Shown: positions 28,295-41,007 of the stretch, one piece after another
How positions within the stretch are numbered: the first letter of the stretch is position 1
Layout: each line of letters opens with the position of its first letter
From: Sulfitobacter aestuariivivens
GTDB lineage: Bacteria; Pseudomonadota; Alphaproteobacteria; Rhodobacterales; Rhodobacteraceae
Direction of reading: 5' to 3'
NCBI RefSeq assembly: GCF_014763045.1
Contig: NZ_JACTAG010000001.1
Coordinates: 310,001 to 374,000, forward strand
Length of the DNA stretch: 64,000 nucleotides
Translations under genes and position numbers: made by a program
The notes under the pieces: model-generated
The model's database searches: none
The model's input: only the letters and a program-made list of their open reading frames with translations
Told to the model about the DNA's origin: nothing

Positions 28295-28810
28295 ATGGGT
28301 TTGGTTGAAGCCATCAAGACGTGCCTCGCAAAGTACTTTGTCTTTTCGGGGCGCGCGGTGCGGTCCGAGTACTGGTGGTTTGTGTTGTTCGTAGTTGTCG
28401 TGAGCCTCGTCTTGGCAGTCATTGACGCCTCCCTGTTTGGCATGGACCCGGAAACTGGAGAGAGCAGCCAAGTCCTCACCCCGATATTCCAACTTGCCGT
28501 TGTCGTACCCATGCTTGCCGCTGGATGGCGTCGACTTCATGACACCGGAAGACCAGGCTGGTACTTGCTTTTGCCTGCAGCACTAAGCATCGCAACCATG
28601 TTCATGCTGTTCAGTGGCGTCGCTGTATTCTCAGTGCTCGAGCAAGGCGCGGGCGACCCTGAAGCGTTGAGAGGCCCAGCGGCACTACTTGGCGTCACCG
28701 GCGTGATGGTTGTGGGTGTCCTTCAACTTATACTCTCGGTGCTGATGATCTGGTGGCTAAGCCGACCGTCACAGCAAGGTACAAATGAATATGGTCCACC
28801 CGCAGCTTGA
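28295..28810 (+). CDS. DUF805 membrane protein
   Basis: A 171-residue inner-membrane protein with the DUF805 start (YFVFSGRAVRSEYWWF), four predicted helices and the conserved RRLHDTGRPGWY motif (about 80-91). The family is widespread and of unknown function. GGGAGTG lies 9 bases before the ATG. It starts a run of four same-strand genes that otherwise encode exported proteins, spaced 28-73 bases apart, so a shared transcript is likely. Confidence 0.9.
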   Translation: MGLVEAIKTCLAKYFVFSGRAVRSEYWWFVLFVVVVSLVLAVIDASLFGMDPETGESSQVLTPIFQLAVVVPMLAAGWRRLHDTGRPGWYLLLPAALSIATMFMLFSGVAVFSVLEQGAGDPEALRGPAALLGVTGVMVVGVLQLILSVLMIWWLSRPSQQGTNEYGPPAA

Positions 28811-28883
28811 ACTTATGACGTGGGTCATCATTGCTTTCGCAGCGACATTGCGAAACATGGCTAAACTGCCAAGGGGGTTATAT

Positions 28884-29654
28884 ATGAAGACGCATCTAGT
28901 CGCCGGCACGGTCCTTACATTCATGCTGTCAACACCTGCGACGGCTGACTGGAACTTCAGTGGGCCTCCGAATGCCAACGCCTTCATCCAGACAGACAAC
29001 ATGACGCTGGAGTTGCAATGTGATTGGGTCCGTTTTGCGCCAGCAGGTTACGAGGACTCGCAAGACATCGTTTCCAAGCAAGGCCTGTCCTTTCGGTTCA
29101 TGAAAGATGGTTCGACCGAGGTGGGTGCGTTTCAGGCAGGATCAGTGAATGCGGATATCTCGCTCGTCGACAACTATCCTGTTGAGGTCCGTTTCTTCGA
29201 TCAGGGCGACTATGATTTCGTTTTGGATCAGATCGCGCAGAACGCCGTTCTGAACCTTTCGATGGCTGACCAGGATGTCTCTTATGGCATCTTTACACTC
29301 AAAGGATCATCTGCAGCGGTGAGATCCCTGCGCGCGGCCTGCGGCTCTAACGCGTCGACATCACAGAGCATGGAGGCGCCAGAAGGCATTGTGTATTGCG
29401 GTGGCGGTGCGGTGCAGAGGGTCATCGAATACGCGATAGTAGGTCAATCAGGTGACCAGTGGGATGCCGTTGTGACCGTCAATGGTGAGACCGTACGCGC
29501 GATGACCTCATACAGCTTCTTCGGAAACTCCGAACCACCGGCAGGCTTCCAGGTGGCGCTCTTGGGTGAAGATCGGTCAGAGTTCCTCGTCTTCAGCGAT
29601 GGGGGCCGGAACTGGATCGAGTTTGGCGATTACACCTACGATCAGTGCAATTGA
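28884..29654 (+). CDS. Exported protein of unknown function
   Basis: A 256-residue protein with a signal peptide (MKTHLVAGTVLTFMLSTPATA, cleavage before DWNF). The mature part is beta-rich and has four cysteines that could form two disulfides (LQCDW, RAACGS, VYCGGG, YDQCN). AAGGGGG lies 6 bases before the ATG at 28884; an earlier in-frame start at 28785 would overlap the DUF805 gene and bury the signal. No family recognised. It is probably periplasmic and cotranscribed with its neighbours. Confidence 0.75.
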   Translation: MKTHLVAGTVLTFMLSTPATADWNFSGPPNANAFIQTDNMTLELQCDWVRFAPAGYEDSQDIVSKQGLSFRFMKDGSTEVGAFQAGSVNADISLVDNYPVEVRFFDQGDYDFVLDQIAQNAVLNLSMADQDVSYGIFTLKGSSAAVRSLRAACGSNASTSQSMEAPEGIVYCGGGAVQRVIEYAIVGQSGDQWDAVVTVNGETVRAMTSYSFFGNSEPPAGFQVALLGEDRSEFLVFSDGGRNWIEFGDYTYDQCN

Positions 29655-30536: not shown

Positions 30537-31054
30537 ACCAGATAATTGCAGAATTTGGCACGAGCAAACCTCGGTTCCGCTTTGGTGCCTGACGGCTTGG
30601 CTGGAAGGCTTGGTGCATTGCTGCATCTCCCAGCATTATCAGTCGACCACTTCCGGTTTCGGCCCAAAGCGGACACCACGCCGCTCAACTTGGCTGCGAT
30701 GCGGCGTTTTCTGGAGCAGACATTCGCTGCGGTAGCGATATCGAACGGAGAGTGAAATAAGCAGTCGAAGGCTATCCGCCTTTTGCGACTTCGCTACAAT
30801 TGACTGCATGACTTTTCATCTGTGATCGCCCTTCGAGTCCATTGAGCATGCCTCAATTGTTTGCATTTGATTGCTGGCAGAGGGCAAACTTAAAGCAATC
30901 ATTATTGCTCCAACCAAAGATACCTCGGGAAGTGATCTTGTAAGTCACGAGAAGAACACTTTGCGGATCACCAGCATGCCCGCATTTTCGACTTGTGGAT
31001 GTGTGAAACTCATGTTCGATTTGTCTTATGAGCATTTGGTCTGAAAGGAATTCT
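30537..31054. repeat. Intergenic, dispersed-repeat copy
   Basis: No gene. From about 30580 to 30760 the dispersed repeat recurs: GCATTGCTGCATCTCCCAG, then CTTCCGGTTTCGGCCCAAAG and GACATTCGCTGCGGTAGCG. After 30780 the sequence turns AT-rich and holds the promoter of the metalloprotease operon. Confidence 0.5.
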
Positions 31055-33517
31055 ATGCGAATTGCATTCGCAGTCGCTATCCTTATCTGTCATCTTGTTC
31101 CTTTGCCCACGTCAGCGCGTGACACTGAGGATTATCAGCAGATCGTCGCGGGTGCGAAGTTGAGCGATGGACCGGTCCAGATTTTCGCAAAGGACGCGCA
31201 CCATTATCTATCACTCCCGCCTGACATCTTCGACCGGACCCTGATTTGGTCCGCGGAGGTGGCGCGATATCCGGCGGATGCGATTTCATTGGCCGGTACG
31301 GAGATTGCAACCCGAGCCATAAAACTGGAACGACAAGGCAACCGCGTGCTTGTGCGGTCTCTTTCATCGGGGTCGATCCGCGCAAGCGGTACGGCAGGGT
31401 TTCCGACCGAAAGCCTGAAGATGACCCCAATCAATATTGCTTTCGCGAATGCCCAGATCGGTCCGGTTCTGCTCTCGTTCGACATTCTGGCAGAGAATTC
31501 GGACGGCCGGATCCTTCTGGAAACGACGGGGCCGTTCACATCCGATATCGCAGACTACTCGGTGAAGGGCCAATTGAGCAGCACGGGGATGACATCGATT
31601 GCGGTCGATCCTGCGAGGTCCTACATTGCACGCGCCTCTGCCCATCCAACGAACATCTTCCTCGTCTCGCATCTGACGTTCATGGCACAGGATCAACTGG
31701 GGCAGGATCGCGCGCTATCAATCGAAGTTGCCCATACCATCACGATGCTGCCTAAGGACCCGATGGAGCGTCGGCCATTTGATCCGCGCGTGGGATATTT
31801 CGCGACAGAAGTGCTCAACTTCGAAGGCGATGACGGATCGCCAGCAAGTATCCTTCAACTCGCTTTGCGACACCGTCTTACACACGCCGATCCGGACGCC
31901 CCGCGCCCGTCTGATCCGGTTGAGCCGTTGGTCTACTATCTCTCGCCGGAAATCCCCAAAAGATGGCGTTCCTACATCCGCGCCGCCATTGAAGACTGGC
32001 AACCGGCCTTCGAAGCGGCAGGTTTTTCCAATGCTATTGTAGCACGAGACGCTCCGACACAGGAAGAAGACCCCGATTGGTCAATCAACGACGCCAGCAA
32101 CAATGTCATCCGGTGGCTCACACAACCGATTGCCAATGCACTTGGACCAAACGTCCATGACCCCCGCACGGGCGAGATCATTTCTGCACACATTCTGGTT
32201 TGGCCTGATGTACTGAACACCTTCTCAGACTATTACTATTTGCTGATGTCGGACATTGATCCCCGGGCGCAGTCGCTGCCGCTTCCCGAAGAAGTTCAGG
32301 GCCGCATTCTTCGCTATGCGGTCAGCCACGAAGTGGGCCATACGCTTGGGCTACGCCACAATCACCATGCCTCAACTGCATGGAGCACAGATCAGCTACG
32401 TGACGCGGCCTTCGTGGCTGAACAAGGATCGACATCATCAATTATGGCCTACGGTCGGTTCAACTATGTCGCGCGGCCCGAAGACGGCATTGATCAGTTT
32501 TTTCCGTTGATCGGCAGCTACGATTCTCATGCGATTGAATGGGGCTACACACCAAACCTCGACGCCGCAGAGCTGGACACAATTGCATCCGCGTCGACCG
32601 AGAAACACGAGCTTGTTTGGGGTGCGGGTGAGTTGCCATCCGAGGGCTATGGACGGCTCGATCCAAAAATCCTCACCGAAAACATCGGTGCAAATCGTAT
32701 CGAGGCCACCCGCGCGGGCGTGGCCGCCCTTCAAAGCTCTCTTGCCCGATTACCGGACGCCATTGCGCCATCACCTGCGAAAGCCGACATCATGGGCCGC
32801 GTCTTTGATCAGGCCAAGGAGCGTTACCTGGGTTTCATGGATAGCGTGGTCCAGATGGTTGGCGGTTTGACGTCGACCGCATCGGATGGTCTGCCGACCG
32901 GATACTCACGCGTTGAGGATTCAAAGGCCGCCTTGAATTATCTGATCTCCGAAGGCGTTTCCGGCCTCGACATGTTTGCCGATCCGAAGCTGTTGGCAGA
33001 GTTCCGACCTGTTGGCGGATTGGAAGGGGCCGACGCCATGGCGCGAAAACTCCTATCGGATATACTCGAGCCGTCCAAAATTCGGTTGGTCTACACGCAG
33101 AATGAGCTGCGCCCTGATCGAAATTTTGGCGTGGCTGAAATGCTCGCAATCATCACTGATGCCTTTTTGCAGGATGCGGAAGCGATTGAGAATATGGCCT
33201 CGCCTAAACGTGCAGCGCTGGCGCAGTATGTCGAACTGCTGCGAACCTTACCCTCATATGAGGGGGATCCATCGGTCGAAGTACTGGCAGTCCTTGGTTT
33301 CCCGCAAGGTCTTGTCGATCTGAGCGCTGCGGGCTTGACCGACACAGGTCTTGATGCAGCGGCGGCGCGGGAGTTGGAACGACTGGTCGCAGCGCTGGCA
33401 CCCCAGGGAGACGGGTTGGCAACCCGGTTATTCAAAGATGTTGAGCGTCTAATTGGGATCGATCCGGATGCGGAGAAAACAACAGCGACACCCCCCTCTG
33501 GAGGAAATGGCCCATGA
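31055..33517 (+). CDS. Exported zinc metalloprotease, DUF5117/DUF5118-type
   Basis: An 820-residue protein with a signal peptide (MRIAFAVAILICHLVPLPTSA). It carries the metzincin-type zinc site HEVGHTLGLRH (H425, H429, H435). The long N-terminal region (about 30-250) matches the DUF5117/5118 part of large bacterial metalloproteases, and a helical C-terminal part (about 560-800) follows. AAGGAA lies 6 bases before the ATG at 31055. Family members of 800-900 residues are periplasmic or secreted with unknown substrates. The gene heads a tight five-gene operon and overlaps the following lipoprotein gene by ATGA. Confidence 0.9.
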   Translation: MRIAFAVAILICHLVPLPTSARDTEDYQQIVAGAKLSDGPVQIFAKDAHHYLSLPPDIFDRTLIWSAEVARYPADAISLAGTEIATRAIKLERQGNRVLVRSLSSGSIRASGTAGFPTESLKMTPINIAFANAQIGPVLLSFDILAENSDGRILLETTGPFTSDIADYSVKGQLSSTGMTSIAVDPARSYIARASAHPTNIFLVSHLTFMAQDQLGQDRALSIEVAHTITMLPKDPMERRPFDPRVGYFATEVLNFEGDDGSPASILQLALRHRLTHADPDAPRPSDPVEPLVYYLSPEIPKRWRSYIRAAIEDWQPAFEAAGFSNAIVARDAPTQEEDPDWSINDASNNVIRWLTQPIANALGPNVHDPRTGEIISAHILVWPDVLNTFSDYYYLLMSDIDPRAQSLPLPEEVQGRILRYAVSHEVGHTLGLRHNHHASTAWSTDQLRDAAFVAEQGSTSSIMAYGRFNYVARPEDGIDQFFPLIGSYDSHAIEWGYTPNLDAAELDTIASASTEKHELVWGAGELPSEGYGRLDPKILTENIGANRIEATRAGVAALQSSLARLPDAIAPSPAKADIMGRVFDQAKERYLGFMDSVVQMVGGLTSTASDGLPTGYSRVEDSKAALNYLISEGVSGLDMFADPKLLAEFRPVGGLEGADAMARKLLSDILEPSKIRLVYTQNELRPDRNFGVAEMLAIITDAFLQDAEAIENMASPKRAALAQYVELLRTLPSYEGDPSVEVLAVLGFPQGLVDLSAAGLTDTGLDAAAARELERLVAALAPQGDGLATRLFKDVERLIGIDPDAEKTTATPPSGGNGP

Positions 33518-33906
33518 AACCAATCGTCTCATTGCTCGGAGGCCTGGCACTTGCTGCATGTAGCGTGTCCCAATCCAGCGAAGAAACCCTGCGTCAGCAT
33601 GGATATTCGGCAACTTATGTTGCGGGTTACCACGACGGCTGCCCTAGCGGGAAACGCGCGGGCGGGGACATGTTTTCCCAACGGATGCAAAACGCTTCAG
33701 CCTATGCTGCCGATGGCGACTACAAAACCGGTTGGGATTTTGGATTTGTGCAGTGCCGTGAGATCGAGGCACGTAATGAAGCAATAGCAGGGGCAATCGG
33801 TACTGCCATTGCATCAGGGGCGGGGCGTAGCCATGGCGCAGATGGCGTTGATGTGCGTAAGATCATGTCGGGGATTGATACCTCGGGCCTCGAAAACCTC
33901 AATTGA
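33514..33906 (+). CDS. Small lipoprotein in metalloprotease operon
   Basis: A 130-residue protein with a lipoprotein signal (MKPIVSLLGGLALAAC, lipidated C16). The mature part has YVAGYHDGCPSGKRAGG and WDFGFVQC, two cysteines that could pair, and a Gly/Ala-rich helix near 95-110. It overlaps the protease gene by ATGA, so production is coupled. A role as partner or anchor of the protease is an inference from coupling only. No family recognised with confidence. Confidence 0.75.
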   Translation: MKPIVSLLGGLALAACSVSQSSEETLRQHGYSATYVAGYHDGCPSGKRAGGDMFSQRMQNASAYAADGDYKTGWDFGFVQCREIEARNEAIAGAIGTAIASGAGRSHGADGVDVRKIMSGIDTSGLENLN

Positions 33907-33919
33907 ATAGGAAAGAAAC

Positions 33920-34216
33920 ATGACTTTACTCCTTCGCACAATTTCGCTCGTCGGCATTGCCGTCGTCTCGATGTCTTCGGCCGTTCTCGCTTTTGACCGA
34001 GAGACGACAGATGCTCTCAAGGCCTGCCATGACCACCTTTGGGAGGTATCGGAATTCGCCGACCTGCCAAATGCCGCGCTGTCTGTGTGGCCCGCCTCAT
34101 CCAATGACGGCGTGACAAAAATCTATTGGGTGGTGGACTGGTCCGACCCGGACATCCGCGCTGCCGGTCAGTGTGAATATAGCGGGGATGAAGTCACCGG
34201 CTATGAGCGCTTCTGA
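33920..34216 (+). CDS. Small exported protein in metalloprotease operon
   Basis: A 98-residue protein with a signal peptide (MTLLLRTISLVGIAVVSMSSAVLAF). The mature 73 residues hold two cysteines (KACHDH, GQCEYS) and aromatic residues (IYWVVDWSDPD). AGGAAAG lies 6 bases before the ATG. It sits 13 bases after the lipoprotein gene and overlaps the MFS gene start. It is probably periplasmic, of unknown function. Confidence 0.7.
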   Translation: MTLLLRTISLVGIAVVSMSSAVLAFDRETTDALKACHDHLWEVSEFADLPNAALSVWPASSNDGVTKIYWVVDWSDPDIRAAGQCEYSGDEVTGYERF

Positions 34217-36642: not shown

Positions 36643-38001
36643 CTACTGTTTTCGCCGCTTAACCGACACAATGCAGTGCGAGTGCCGTGGGTGCAAAGCT
36701 GGAAGATCGCGCCCAAGCACGTCAACCGATCCCACATGGCGTAGCGCACCCGATGAAACGACTTTTCCATTCCGCACAGATTTGCGCTTACCGTGACCGC
36801 TTGCCAAACAGTTCCAGGTTTCCCCGTCTGCTTTGCCTCGGAACGCCGGAGGATTATGCGCGGGTTGGCGTCCTGGCGTTGCGGTGATCAACTCGCGTCC
36901 GATGCCGTCTGGCCTCGGTTTCGGCCTATGCACGATCTTGGGCACTGCGGTCGGGACCATTTGAGGAATCGTTTGCGGTCTGGCTTGGGGCCGCGCGTTC
37001 GGAACGATTTGTGGGATCATCAGCGGAACGGATACGGGTACAGTGACCTTGGCAGGCACAGTCTGTGGCACGTTCGGTAAGACAGGTTGCCCGGTTTGAA
37101 CTGTACCGGAAGGAACACTCACGGTTTGACCGAGGGGCAAGGGAACGCGGTTGGGCACCACTGGTTTTGGTCTGGGAAGTACAAGAACCGTTTGCGGAAC
37201 TTGGCCTGGCACTCTCCCTGGCACCGCGACTGGGACTTGACCAGGGCCCGGCTGCGGCACCTGGTTCGGTACGGCCAGCGGCGTCGGAACCTGACTCGGG
37301 ATCGGCTGCGGCACCTGGTTAGGCACGGCCAGCGGCGTCGGAACCTGACTCGGGATCGGCTGCGGCACTTGGTTAGGCACGGCCAAAGGGGTCGGAACCT
37401 GACCCGGGATCGGCTGCGGCACCTGGTTCGGTACGGCCAGCGGCGTCGGAACCCGACCCGGGATCGGCTGCGGCACCTGGTTAGGCACGGCCAGCGGCGT
37501 CGGAACCTGACTCGGGATCGGCTGCGGCACTTGGTTAGGCACGGCCAAAGGGGTCGGAACCTGACCCGGGATCGGCTGCGGCACCTGGTTCGGTACGGCC
37601 AGCGGCGTCGGAACCCGACCCGGGATCGGCTGCGGCACTTGGTTAGGCACGGCCAGAGGGGTCGGAACCTGCCCCGGAATGGCCTGTGGGACCTGATTGG
37701 GCACAGCAATCGGTACTTGGCCGGGAACAGCATTCGGAGCAATCGACGGCACGAGAACAGGCGCTACCGAAGGCGTCGGAACGCTTCCTTCTGTGGTAGG
37801 TAAGGGGTTCGCTGTGGGAACTTCGCTTGGAGACATAGTTGGCCCTGGGGTGTTTGCTGACCCTCCGCTCGAACCACCACATTGTGTGCTGGCGTGTGGG
37901 TTCCCTCGGCCATTGCACCATCCGTAATGACTGCCAGCCGCGATCGCGGTAGTTCCGCAGGACAATCCGATAAGAAATGTGACAGCGGCCAAATGTTTCA
38001 C
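36643..38001 (-). CDS. Exported VPxxVP tandem-repeat protein
   Basis: A 452-residue protein with a signal peptide (MKHLAAVTFLIGLSCGTTAIA). After a Ser/Gly/Pro linker, residues 90-270 are about eight 18-residue repeats of the form VPNQVPQPIPGQVPTPLA. The region to about 350 has looser VP/IP repeats. The C-terminal 75 residues differ: they hold two cysteines (WNCLASGHGKRK and HSHCIVSVKRRKQ) and look like a small folded domain. GTG at 38001 has AAGGAG 7 bases upstream inside the porin gene, and the two genes abut with no gap. No TPS hemagglutination domain is visible. It could be the passenger of the TpsB-like porin; that is inferred from position only. Confidence 0.8.
   Translation of the reverse strand: MKHLAAVTFLIGLSCGTTAIAAGSHYGWCNGRGNPHASTQCGGSSGGSANTPGPTMSPSEVPTANPLPTTEGSVPTPSVAPVLVPSIAPNAVPGQVPIAVPNQVPQAIPGQVPTPLAVPNQVPQPIPGRVPTPLAVPNQVPQPIPGQVPTPLAVPNQVPQPIPSQVPTPLAVPNQVPQPIPGRVPTPLAVPNQVPQPIPGQVPTPLAVPNQVPQPIPSQVPTPLAVPNQVPQPIPSQVPTPLAVPNQVPQPGPGQVPVAVPGRVPGQVPQTVLVLPRPKPVVPNRVPLPLGQTVSVPSGTVQTGQPVLPNVPQTVPAKVTVPVSVPLMIPQIVPNARPQARPQTIPQMVPTAVPKIVHRPKPRPDGIGRELITATPGRQPAHNPPAFRGKADGETWNCLASGHGKRKSVRNGKVVSSGALRHVGSVDVLGRDLPALHPRHSHCIVSVKRRKQ
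37240..37690 (-). repeat. 54-bp coding tandem repeat with 162-bp higher-order duplication
   Basis: About eight 54-base units encode the VPNQVPQPIPxxVPTPLA repeats. Units alternate as R/Q/S variants at one position. A block of three units (162 bp) is repeated in tandem without a single difference over about 175 bases (37298-37475 against 37460-37637). This is the mark of a recent slippage or unequal exchange. Confidence 0.9.
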
Positions 38002-39492
38002 TTACCAGCTCCTTGTCAGACCAATATAGAGAGATGGGTCGTGTTCATTCGTCGTTGGACCATCAGTCAGAGGTACGGCTACATGCGTGGTCGCGAACAA
38101 ATTGTTGGTAAAGTGCGTATCTAGGCCGACACCCAGAGATGCGAACGTGTCATCCCCGTCATCGCTATTTCTTACCACGTATCCCACATCCGCAAATATG
38201 AAGGGACGCATGCGTTCGACAGCAGCCGAATTCGGAAATAAGTCTCGTCCGATTGAGACGGTCGCTGAAAGGCCACTGTCGCCCTGCGCTTCCGCAAAGC
38301 GATATCCCCGCTCATCAAAGCGTCCGCCGATGTAGAACTGTTCCGCTGAGGGGAGTTCATTGTTGGTCACCTGCCCCCAGAATTCGGCATGCAGATAACT
38401 GTGTTCACCCAGCCAATTATTCGGAACGTTGACCCCGGCACCAAAACGCAGATGCGTGAAGCTTTCATCACCATCGGTGAATCCATCCAAATCGGATGCG
38501 CGCGCTCCGTAGGTCAATGACGCCGCATATTCCCATGCGGCCCCATTTTCGAACGCTTTACCGTAAATCCATGTTGCCGAAATTGCATTGATCTCACTGT
38601 CGAATTCCTCTCCAGCGACATCAATCTCTGTGCTGGAATGGCGAAATTCTAACAACCCGTAGCCATAAGTATCGATGTCCCGGAGCACGGGGTATCCCAA
38701 TGCGAAGATCGCAGTTCGCCCGGCGATATCTGTTTCCTGCAAGGCACCATCAACATCACGGCGCGCCCCGACGTTGCCGAGATATGTCTCTGCATAGGCC
38801 CCACTACCACCCAAAGGTAGGCGGTATCGTAGTGCCCCAAACAATGTATCATCACCTGAAAAGTCACTCGTCCCGGAGAGTTCGATCCCCAAAAGGTCGC
38901 CGGGTGTGAACGCACTCAGGAAGGTTTGGCCGAAAGTTAAGGTCGCTTCGTTGCCAAGTTCGCGCGCCGGATGGTCCAGCGTGATGAAACCGCTGGACCT
39001 CTGTTCATCGATCGCAACAACGCGAAGCTCTGCAGGACCATTCGGATCAGGATAAGCGACCTCTGCTGTAACAGAAACGGACCCAATGTCATCAGAAAGC
39101 ATCAAAGCCCGCTCGAAATCAGTGAGTGTCGTTGGCCGTGTCTCAAGGAGAGGTTGCATATACCGCATTATCAGCGATGCCGCATCAGCGTCAGAGCCCT
39201 CAATAACAACGCTGCCAATGGAGCCCTCATCGACGAACAAGGATGTCCCATTGGGCTCCAGGAAAACTTCGGCAAGAAAATACCCATCTTCGCGATAAAT
39301 GACCTCAATCACGTCGATCAACGTGGATACATCAACCACGCCGTACCGCGAAAGTGAAACCTGTGTGGCGAACTCAAGAAGCGCTTGCGGATCATACGCC
39401 GTCACACCGTCCAGCGAAACGGACCGCGACTGCGCACCAGCTGACGTGGACATCGCGCCGATGAAAACGGCCAATAAAATGCGAGCAAGCAT
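38002..39492 (-). CDS. TpsB/ShlB/FhaC-type outer-membrane porin
   Basis: A 496-residue protein with a signal peptide (MLARILLAVFIGAMSTSAGA). A POTRA-type domain lies at about 25-105 (IYREDGYFLAEVFL, then VDEGSIGSVVIEG), followed by a beta-barrel of alternating residues. The Omp85/TpsB loop-6 motif GGRFDERGYRFAE occurs at about 397-409, and the chain ends in an aromatic strand (LYIGLTRSW). Such porins export or activate large TpsA passengers. Only one POTRA domain could be seen, so the protein is slightly shorter than FhaC. The next gene starts one base after its stop and encodes the VPxxVP protein. Confidence 0.85.
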   Translation of the reverse strand: MLARILLAVFIGAMSTSAGAQSRSVSLDGVTAYDPQALLEFATQVSLSRYGVVDVSTLIDVIEVIYREDGYFLAEVFLEPNGTSLFVDEGSIGSVVIEGSDADAASLIMRYMQPLLETRPTTLTDFERALMLSDDIGSVSVTAEVAYPDPNGPAELRVVAIDEQRSSGFITLDHPARELGNEATLTFGQTFLSAFTPGDLLGIELSGTSDFSGDDTLFGALRYRLPLGGSGAYAETYLGNVGARRDVDGALQETDIAGRTAIFALGYPVLRDIDTYGYGLLEFRHSSTEIDVAGEEFDSEINAISATWIYGKAFENGAAWEYAASLTYGARASDLDGFTDGDESFTHLRFGAGVNVPNNWLGEHSYLHAEFWGQVTNNELPSAEQFYIGGRFDERGYRFAEAQGDSGLSATVSIGRDLFPNSAAVERMRPFIFADVGYVVRNSDDGDDTFASLGVGLDTHFTNNLFATTHVAVPLTDGPTTNEHDPSLYIGLTRSW

Positions 39493-39714: not shown

Positions 39715-40572
39715 TTAGGCCACTTTCCGTTCGAAGGCGACCGGGCTTTTCCATCCCAAGGCTGAATGCCGTCTTCGTGGATTATGGAAGCCGTTGATGT
39801 ACTGGAAGATCGCCGCTTCGGCCTGCCGTCTGGTTTCCCACGAACGCCGCCAGATCAATTCTACTTTGATCGTTTTGAAGAAGGTTTCGACGGCGGAGTT
39901 GTCGTAGCAATTTCCTTTGCCAGACATCGATACTTTGAAGCCGTGCTGGCGCAGGATTTTTTTATAGTCATGCGAACAGTATTGCGACCCACGATCTGTG
40001 TGTTGAATGCAGCCTTTGGGCGGTTGCCGCAGTGCCACAGCCATCTTCAATGCCCGGATCGCCAGGTCACGCTTCATCCTGTTGCTGACCGCCCAGCCGA
40101 TCACGCGGCGAGAATGAAGGTCAAGGATCACTGCCAGATACAGCCACCCTTCTCGGGTCCAGACATAGCTGATGTCGCCTGCCCATTTCTGATTGGGGCC
40201 ATCAGCATAGAAGTCTCGGTTCAGCAGGTTCGGCGCGATGTTGAAGGCATTGTTGCTGTCCGTCGTGACCTTGTACTTCTTCGACCGCTCAACGCGGATG
40301 CCATTCTCACGCATCAGCCGACCGACACGACGATGCCCCACGCTCAGGCCTAGCTCCTTCAGTTCTTCGGTCATCCTTGGACGACCGTAGCTGCCTAGAC
40401 TGAGACGAGATTGTTCCTTGATATGCGCCAAGACAACCATGTCAGTCCGTTGCCTTTGGCTGGCCGGGCGACTGCGATATGCGCATAGGCCGCGTTCGCT
40501 GACATCCAGCAAGACACACATCCGATTGGCGCAAAACGCATCGCGGTGTTCTTCAATGAACTTAAACCTCAT
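39715..40572 (-). CDS. IS3-family transposase ORFB (DDE)
   Basis: A 285-residue integrase-core protein with an HTH_21-type N-terminal part and the rve catalytic core. The DDE triad is visible as WAGDISY, HTDRGSQY and SAVETFFKTIK. Length is full for the family. It starts with ATG overlapping the end of the alternative ORFA frame. In intact relatives ORFA-ORFB fusion by frameshifting makes the active transposase, so this copy is probably not mobile alone. Confidence 0.9.
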   Translation of the reverse strand: MRFKFIEEHRDAFCANRMCVLLDVSERGLCAYRSRPASQRQRTDMVVLAHIKEQSRLSLGSYGRPRMTEELKELGLSVGHRRVGRLMRENGIRVERSKKYKVTTDSNNAFNIAPNLLNRDFYADGPNQKWAGDISYVWTREGWLYLAVILDLHSRRVIGWAVSNRMKRDLAIRALKMAVALRQPPKGCIQHTDRGSQYCSHDYKKILRQHGFKVSMSGKGNCYDNSAVETFFKTIKVELIWRRSWETRRQAEAAIFQYINGFHNPRRRHSALGWKSPVAFERKVA

Positions 40573-40933: not shown

Positions 40934-41007
40934 GCGGGCGTTGTGTAATGGTAAGACCCTTGCCTTCCAAGCAAGAGATGCGGGTTCGATTCCCGCCGCC
41001 CGCTCCA
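40934..41007 (+). tRNA. tRNA-Gly (anticodon TCC), CCA encoded
   Basis: A full cloverleaf: acceptor GCGGGCG/CGCCCGC, D-loop AATGGTAA, anticodon stem CTTGC/GCAAG with loop CTTCCAA (anticodon TCC), T-arm GCGGG-TTCGATT-CCCGC, discriminator T and CCA. The D-stem has one G-G mismatch. A second partial 3' half lies 138 bp downstream. Confidence 0.9.

What the first reader, a model, noticed from the sequence alone, without database searches (positions are those of the whole stretch)
36643..39492. TpsB-like porin coupled to a VPxxVP-repeat exported protein: possible non-canonical two-partner system
A TpsB/FhaC-type porin is followed, with no gap, by an exported 452-residue proline-rich repeat protein instead of a large beta-helical TpsA passenger. 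The ribosome site of the repeat protein lies in the porin gene, so production is coupled. The passenger has no recognisable TPS domain but ends in a distinct two-cysteine domain. A new passenger class for TpsB porins is possible.
Basis: partly seen in the sequence, partly recalled or inferred. Interest (0 to 1): 0.85.

Follow-up and report, generated by a model that had tools for sequence, protein, structure and literature searches.

The report
Porin with proline-stalk partner protein
Next to an outer-membrane protein-export pore, this bacterium carries a gene for an exported, proline-rich protein unlike the usual cargo of such pores; the same two genes sit side by side in distantly related bacteria, which suggests an unusual variant of two-partner secretion.

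Summary
A 496-residue TpsB/FhaC-type porin (38002-39492, minus strand) is followed with zero gap by an exported 452-residue protein (36643-38001). The pair is conserved: on 26 of 26 distinct contigs with an orthologous porin the partner follows at once (Rhodobacterales, Roseibium, Sphingomonadaceae, Burkholderiales), and two more divergent pairs exist (G558, G329). In 295-genome family searches the seven genomes with the porin ortholog are the seven with a strong hit of the partner's C-terminal domain. One orphan partner without a porin was found (G1043). The VPxxVP repeats are not the signature: one paired member lacks them. Constant are four cysteines: an N-terminal pair 9-13 residues apart and a C-terminal pair 45-46 apart (26 of 26 complete partners). 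No TPS domain occurs in the partner or in the ten genomes tested. The modelled porin has two POTRA domains and 16 strands but no H1 plug helix. Best reading: a non-canonical two-partner system in which a disordered proline stalk is passed out and the C-terminal disulfide domain stays as anchor and plug, as described for HMW1/HxuA. Export itself is not shown. New variant of a known kind.

The parts
38002..39492 (-). TpsB/FhaC-type porin gene, 496 aa, stop codon included
39433..39492 (-). signal peptide of the porin (residues 1-20), by eye
   Evidence: sequence; no predictor run
39229..39417 (-). POTRA 1 (residues 26-88)
   Evidence: predicted strands and helices in the model; Pfam POTRA_2 at residues 23-82
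39007..39219 (-). POTRA 2 (residues 92-162)
   Evidence: model
38005..38997 (-). 16-stranded beta-barrel (residues 166-496)
   Evidence: 16 strands counted in the model; Pfam ShlB at residues 302-458
38302..38310 (-). R395-G396-Y397 of the L6-type signature
   Evidence: R395 and G396 invariant in the 21 rows of A3; the name of the loop is from recall and the abstract of PMC4490367
38009..38014 (-). AAGGAG ribosome-binding site of the partner, inside the porin gene
   Evidence: sequence
36643..38001 (-). partner gene, 452 aa, GTG start, stop codon included
37936..38001 (-). signal peptide of the partner (residues 1-22), by eye
   Evidence: sequence; no predictor run
37873..37935 (-). N-terminal cysteine motif (residues 23-43; C29 and C41)
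36940..37839 (-). proline-rich stretch (residues 55-354), with the 54-bp array at 37238-37704
   Evidence: blocks of pLDDT 23-38 in the model
36646..36939 (-). C-terminal two-cysteine domain (residues 355-452; C398 and C443)
   Evidence: 8 invariant columns in 23 rows

Best explanation
The two genes form a non-canonical two-partner secretion unit. Shown: a conserved, adjacent pair made of an Omp85/TpsB-type porin that, by model and alignment, has no plug helix, and a small partner with a signal peptide, no TPS domain and two cysteine pairs at its two ends. Inferred: Sec exports both; the porin takes the unfolded partner by its POTRA domains; the N-terminal short loop and the disordered proline stalk pass to the cell surface; the C-terminal domain, closed by a disulfide over 45-46 residues, is too large to pass, stays at the periplasmic mouth, anchors the stalk and closes the pore, taking the place of the missing H1 plug. 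Each porin would then serve one partner molecule, which fits the coupled genes. The outcome would be a surface stalk of variable length with a small cysteine-loop tip, most likely for binding or attachment.
For: Adjacency in 26 of 26 distinct contigs and in G558 and G329; seven of seven genomes agree between the porin and C-terminal-domain searches; both are rare together, 2 of 62 genomes of the genus. Cysteine spacing fixed in 26 of 26 complete partners while the middle varies from 119 to 360 residues. TpsB fold, two POTRA domains, 16 strands, no helix before POTRA 1; best PDB matches CdiB and FhaC. No TPS domain in ten genomes, so no canonical cargo for this porin was found there. HMW1 and HxuA keep a disulfide-closed C-terminus in the periplasm that locks them in the pore (PMC5422565, passages); closely spaced cysteines are held not to hinder passage (PMC8151025, passages). 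The C-terminal domain reached higher confidence modelled with the porin (ten-residue blocks 89 61 71 71 72 38 57 65 64 68) than alone (mean 45).
Against: No experiment on export exists here. G1043 has a partner and no porin match. The fused model gives no coordinates, so no contact was seen; it is one chain with a stop read as G, and its alignment misplaces the last W of the porin rows into the C-terminal domain. The N-terminal motif is not resolved (blocks 47 and below). Without a beta-helix the usual proposed driving force of export is missing. Whether the cysteines form the assumed pairs is unknown.
Confidence: 0.5

Rival explanations
1. The partner never leaves the periplasm. It is a fixed subunit or plug of an H1-less porin: the C-terminal domain binds the POTRA domains or the barrel mouth and the proline stretch is a flexible periplasmic tether.
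For: No TPS domain; missing H1 would call for another plug; higher confidence of the C-terminal domain beside the porin.
Against: Middle of 131-360 residues in the proline-rich copies, which as an extended polyproline chain (about 0.31 nm per residue, recalled) would exceed the periplasm; length varies, so it is no ruler. An elaborate N-terminal motif would have no evident role.
Confidence: 0.22
2. Reverse use: the N-terminal motif is the recognition signal and the C-terminal domain is delivered to the outside, as a binding head or released effector.
For: The C-terminal domain is the best-conserved part (window against L027: 82% identity, porin 69%, N-terminus 49%); canonical TpsA are recognised at the N-terminus (PMC5422565, passages).
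Against: A disulfide over 45-46 residues formed in the periplasm would hinder passage (inference from PMC8151025); the N-terminal motif is reduced in the Burkholderiales.
Confidence: 0.2
3. The two genes share an operon but do not work together.
For: The orphan partner in G1043.
Against: Adjacency kept in 26 of 26 distinct contigs, G558 and G329, with differing other neighbours; agreement in the same seven genomes.
Confidence: 0.04

Closest known systems
Two-partner secretion (type Vb): FhaB/FhaC, CdiA/CdiB
   Same: Adjacent genes for an exported protein and a TpsB-type pore with two POTRA domains and a 16-stranded barrel; best fold matches CdiB and FhaC.
   Different: No TPS domain, no predicted beta-helix, 452 residues instead of 100-650 kDa (PMC5422565), no H1 plug helix in the pore.
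HMW1/HMW1B and HxuA/HxuB with C-terminal disulfide anchor
   Same: A cysteine pair near the C-terminus of the passenger, proposed to hold it in its pore (PMC5422565).
   Different: Those have a TPS domain and a beta-helical body; here a proline stalk and an additional N-terminal cysteine pair. Sequences were not compared.
Type Vd, PlpD
   Same: A 16-stranded TpsB-like barrel used for a passenger other than a TPS-headed beta-helix (PMC6555100, passage; nature of the PlpD passenger recalled).
   Different: One polypeptide there, two genes here.

Membership tests
TpsB transporter (FhaC/CdiB/ShlB) | sequence family ShlB/FhaC/HecB | tested here: met
   Pfam ShlB 3e-13; profile hits to CdiB 2e-11 and FhaC 5e-7 in PDB sequences
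TpsB transporter (FhaC/CdiB/ShlB) | two POTRA domains and a 16-stranded barrel | tested here: met
   secondary structure of the model; best folds CdiB and FhaC
TpsB transporter (FhaC/CdiB/ShlB) | signature residues RG(Y) of L6 and the inner-wall D/G motif | tested here: met
   R395, G396, D435, G437 invariant in 21 of 21 rows; motif names partly from recall
TpsB transporter (FhaC/CdiB/ShlB) | N-terminal plug helix H1 and linker | tested here: not met
   no helix before POTRA 1 in the model; 3-46 residues before the POTRA 1 Gly, signal peptide included, in 21 rows that start at the match, against 71-175 in 19 of 20 comparison TpsB counted from the first possible start and 34 in one (L018); 13 full N-termini read by eye. 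CdiB without H1 and linker still secretes (PMC7644211)
TpsA passenger | N-terminal TPS domain (PF05860) | tested here: not met
   no Pfam match at E<=1; PF05860 in 0 of 10 genomes with the pair or partner, in 3 of 6 with distant TpsB
TpsA passenger | large beta-helical body, 100-650 kDa | tested here: not met
   452 aa; no strands and pLDDT about 30 in the middle
TpsA passenger | signal peptide and gene next to tpsB | tested here: met
   adjacency; signal peptide by eye only
TpsA passenger | export through the TpsB partner | not testable with these tools
   needs cell fractionation with and without the porin
HMW1/HxuA-type C-terminal anchor | cysteine pair close to the C-terminus | tested here: met
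   26 of 26 complete partners
HMW1/HxuA-type C-terminal anchor | disulfide formed and domain held in the periplasm | not testable with these tools
   needs experiment
HMW1/HxuA-type C-terminal anchor | sequence relation to the HMW1 or HxuA C-terminus | not tested
   no HMW1 or HxuA sequence was fetched

The most novel reading that the evidence does not exclude
A subtype of two-partner secretion without a TPS domain: a TpsB-type pore without its plug helix exports a disordered proline stalk, the C-terminal disulfide domain serving as recognition site, anchor and pore plug at once, one pore per partner, like an autotransporter split into two genes.
Probability: 0.4. Interest if true: 0.8.

Novelty: new variant of a known kind. 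Interest (0 to 1): 0.6.

Why it matters
The review passages seen here say that all TpsA proteins share a TPS domain and are predicted to form beta-helices, and that folding of the helix at the surface probably helps drive export (PMC5422565). A TpsB-type pore whose partner has neither would separate what the pore needs from what the beta-helix supplies, and would give a small, tractable system for asking how such pores recognise and move their cargo without an energy source of their own.

Tried and rejected
Fold of the C-terminal domain alone: mean pLDDT 45, unusable, not searched further. Remote relatives of that domain: PDB profile hits to TREX1 at E 0.1 or worse and Pfam hits at E 0.07 or worse in 1-2 of 18 members were taken as chance. 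The window's partner and those of G558 and G1043 matched nothing in PHROGs at E<=0.1; the window pair nothing in PADLOC at E<=0.1. Viral contigs: 62 pattern stretches, no relative. Plasmids: 28 records with distant TpsB by the porin, none by the C-terminal domain. One of these, H26 (Variovorax, L060), was opened: its porin is a 576-aa TpsB with an 819-aa ORF upstream, and I saw no partner of this kind among its ORFs of 100 aa or more. Three weak family hits of the C-terminal profile (G017, G080, G011; E 6e-4 to 5e-3) were dropped as chance: the frames hold no protein with the cysteine pattern, and G080's lies across an ORF that I recognise from recall as dnaN. The idea of a periplasm-spanning ruler was set aside because lengths vary widely. 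A third gene was considered: a small exported family (window 28785-29654) lies near the pair in 8 of 21 loci compared and occurs in 4 of 7 genomes with the pair against 10 of 288 without (Fisher p 1e-4, taking the two 295-genome draws as the same), so it is enriched but neither required nor specific. The mirror-tree correlation of porin and C-terminal domain (r 0.94, 19 pairs, 0 of 2000 permutations) is not used as evidence, because shared ancestry alone would give it. The first alignment of the fused chain was discarded because partner N-termini were laid on porin columns; the second misplaces the terminal W of the porin rows.

Full report
Observation. The porin (38002-39492, minus strand, 496 aa) and the partner (36643-38001, minus strand, 452 aa) are as described. 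The GTG of the partner follows the TAA of the porin without a gap, and AAGGAG lies 7 nt before it inside the porin gene. The porin matches Pfam ShlB at 3e-13 and POTRA_2 exactly at its cut-off; the partner has no Pfam match at E<=1 and no NCBIfam match. The repeat array is 54 bp by 8.6 copies. Synonymous outnumber non-synonymous codon differences among its eight units, 103 to 48, although 28% of single-base changes would be synonymous.

Conservation of the pair. The porin was searched in 295 genomes of the family: 25 match at E<=1e-5; 7, the own genome included, are orthologs (E<=4.3e-152), 18 are distant TpsB. A pattern scan of the genome collection gave 21 loci. On all 26 a partner with the N-terminal motif follows; its earliest candidate start lies between 4 nt before and 10 nt after the end of the last sense codon of the porin. 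In 24 it is complete; in L043 and L044 the contig ends inside the repeats. The porin of L045 has an in-frame stop. The 21 named loci come from Roseivivax, nine Ruegeria, Shimia, Roseibium, two uncultured Roseobacter, an uncultured Rhodobacteraceae, two Sphingomonadaceae, Zwartia, a Burkholderiaceae bin, and two contigs under 4 kb from bins labelled Gammaproteobacteria, which may be misbinned.

Wider search. A profile of the C-terminal domain matched 4 of 385 genomes of the class, 3 of 398 of the phylum and 10 of 295 of the family, own genome included each time; a wider profile matched 2 of 29 in the family of G558. In the family search seven hits are strong (E<=1.9e-40), in the same seven genome handles that hold the porin ortholog; the two draws have the same size and shared handles, but their full lists are not printed. 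The three weak hits looked like chance. In some searches only part of the candidates in each genome were scored (13 of 58 in one case), so misses are possible. G558 has a divergent porin directly followed by a partner without proline repeats. G329, 84% complete, has the porin and the partner's start on one contig and the partner's end on another. G1043 has a 353-aa partner and no porin match at E<=0.001 in a genome given as 100% complete: an exception to pairing. In the genus of the window's genome 2 of 62 genomes, the own one included, hold the porin.

Anatomy of the partner. All 26 complete partners (24 beside an orthologous porin, G558, and the orphan G1043) have four cysteines after the signal peptide: an N-terminal pair 12-13 apart (9 in G558) and a C-terminal pair 45-46 apart, the last one 7-11 residues from the end; some have one more inside the signal peptide. 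The N-terminal motif of the Rhodobacterales, Roseibium and sphingomonad members is close to GNHxGWCxGxGNPH...CG; in the Burkholderiales it is reduced to cysteines and glycines. The middle holds 19-30% proline in the 24 and 5% and 10% in G558 and G1043. The C-terminal domain has eight invariant columns in 18 and in 23 rows and no relative that I could find. Between the window and its nearest relative L027, non-synonymous change is lower than synonymous in porin and C-terminal domain (pN/pS 0.19/0.76 and 0.12/0.67).

The porin. The model of the fused chain (best of five, mean pLDDT 64, pTM 0.63) shows two POTRA domains and 16 strands, porin blocks at pLDDT 73-96 save two (44 and 62), and no helix before POTRA 1. 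The first four PDB matches are CdiB and FhaC entries, then BamA. Before the first POTRA glycine the 21 rows of this group have 3-46 residues, signal peptide included, but they start at the match; 19 of 20 comparison TpsB, counted from the first possible start, have 71-175, and one (L018) has 34. I therefore read 13 full N-termini by eye: about 5-25 residues follow the signal-peptide-like stretch.

No other TpsA. The TPS domain PF05860 was found in 0 of 10 genomes that hold the pair or partner (two of them 84% and 86% complete) and in 3 of 6 genomes with distant TpsB, on the same contig as that TpsB.

Mechanism. The passages that I read say that all TpsA share a TPS domain of about 250 residues and weigh 100-650 kDa, and that HMW1 and HxuA keep a disulfide-closed C-terminus in the periplasm that locks them in the pore (PMC5422565); that type V passengers have few and closely spaced cysteines, small loops not hindering passage (PMC8151025); and that CdiB without H1 and linker still secretes, whereas in FhaC the linker is essential (PMC7644211). 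On these grounds the short N-terminal loop could pass and the wide C-terminal loop would not. The C-terminal domain gained confidence when modelled with the porin: mean 45 alone, blocks 89 61 71 71 72 38 57 65 64 68 beside it. The anchor model is a reasoned choice, not a result.

Literature. Nine full-text searches were answered; among the rows listed, no title or abstract start described a TpsB pore with a proline-rich, TPS-less partner. Papers seen: passages of PMC5422565, PMC7644211, PMC8151025, PMC6555100 and PMC4104836; PMC4490367 and the rest as listings only. Most subscription papers are not held, so this absence is weak evidence.

Verdict. A real, conserved two-gene unit; TpsB-like by its pore, though without H1; outside the TpsA definition by its partner; function unproven.

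Noticed in passing
window 28785-29654; also near the pair in L033, L037, L040, L042, L047, L064, L065: Small exported cysteine-containing protein family without a Pfam match; in L042 and L047 it ends just before the porin ORF. In 14 of 295 family genomes, 4 of the 7 with the pair.
   Followed up: partly
window 28295-28810: DUF805 membrane protein (7e-26); DUF805-like genes lie near the pair in 8 of 21 loci compared.
   Followed up: partly
window 39715-40572: Transposase of the rve/HTH_21 type (rve 4e-30) about 220 nt upstream of the porin start, same strand; it may have cut the pair off from its old promoter.
   Followed up: partly
window 40934-41007: tRNA-Gly (tcc) next to the transposase, a common site for island insertion; the pair is patchy in the genus (2 of 62).
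   Followed up: no
L029 1895-5709, L035 858-4645, L069 3330-8112: Conserved module near the pair in three loci: a weakly phosphatase-like protein, a 477-507-aa protein of unknown kind, a metallophosphoesterase (8e-16) and a 252-258-aa protein.
   Followed up: partly
window 31028-33517 and 33514-34216: Met-zincin (DUF4953, 7e-59) followed by two small exported cysteine proteins; relatives of both small ones lie together at the end of L029.
   Followed up: no
L045 6001-7434: Shimia copy whose porin has an in-frame stop while the partner gene stays open.
   Followed up: no
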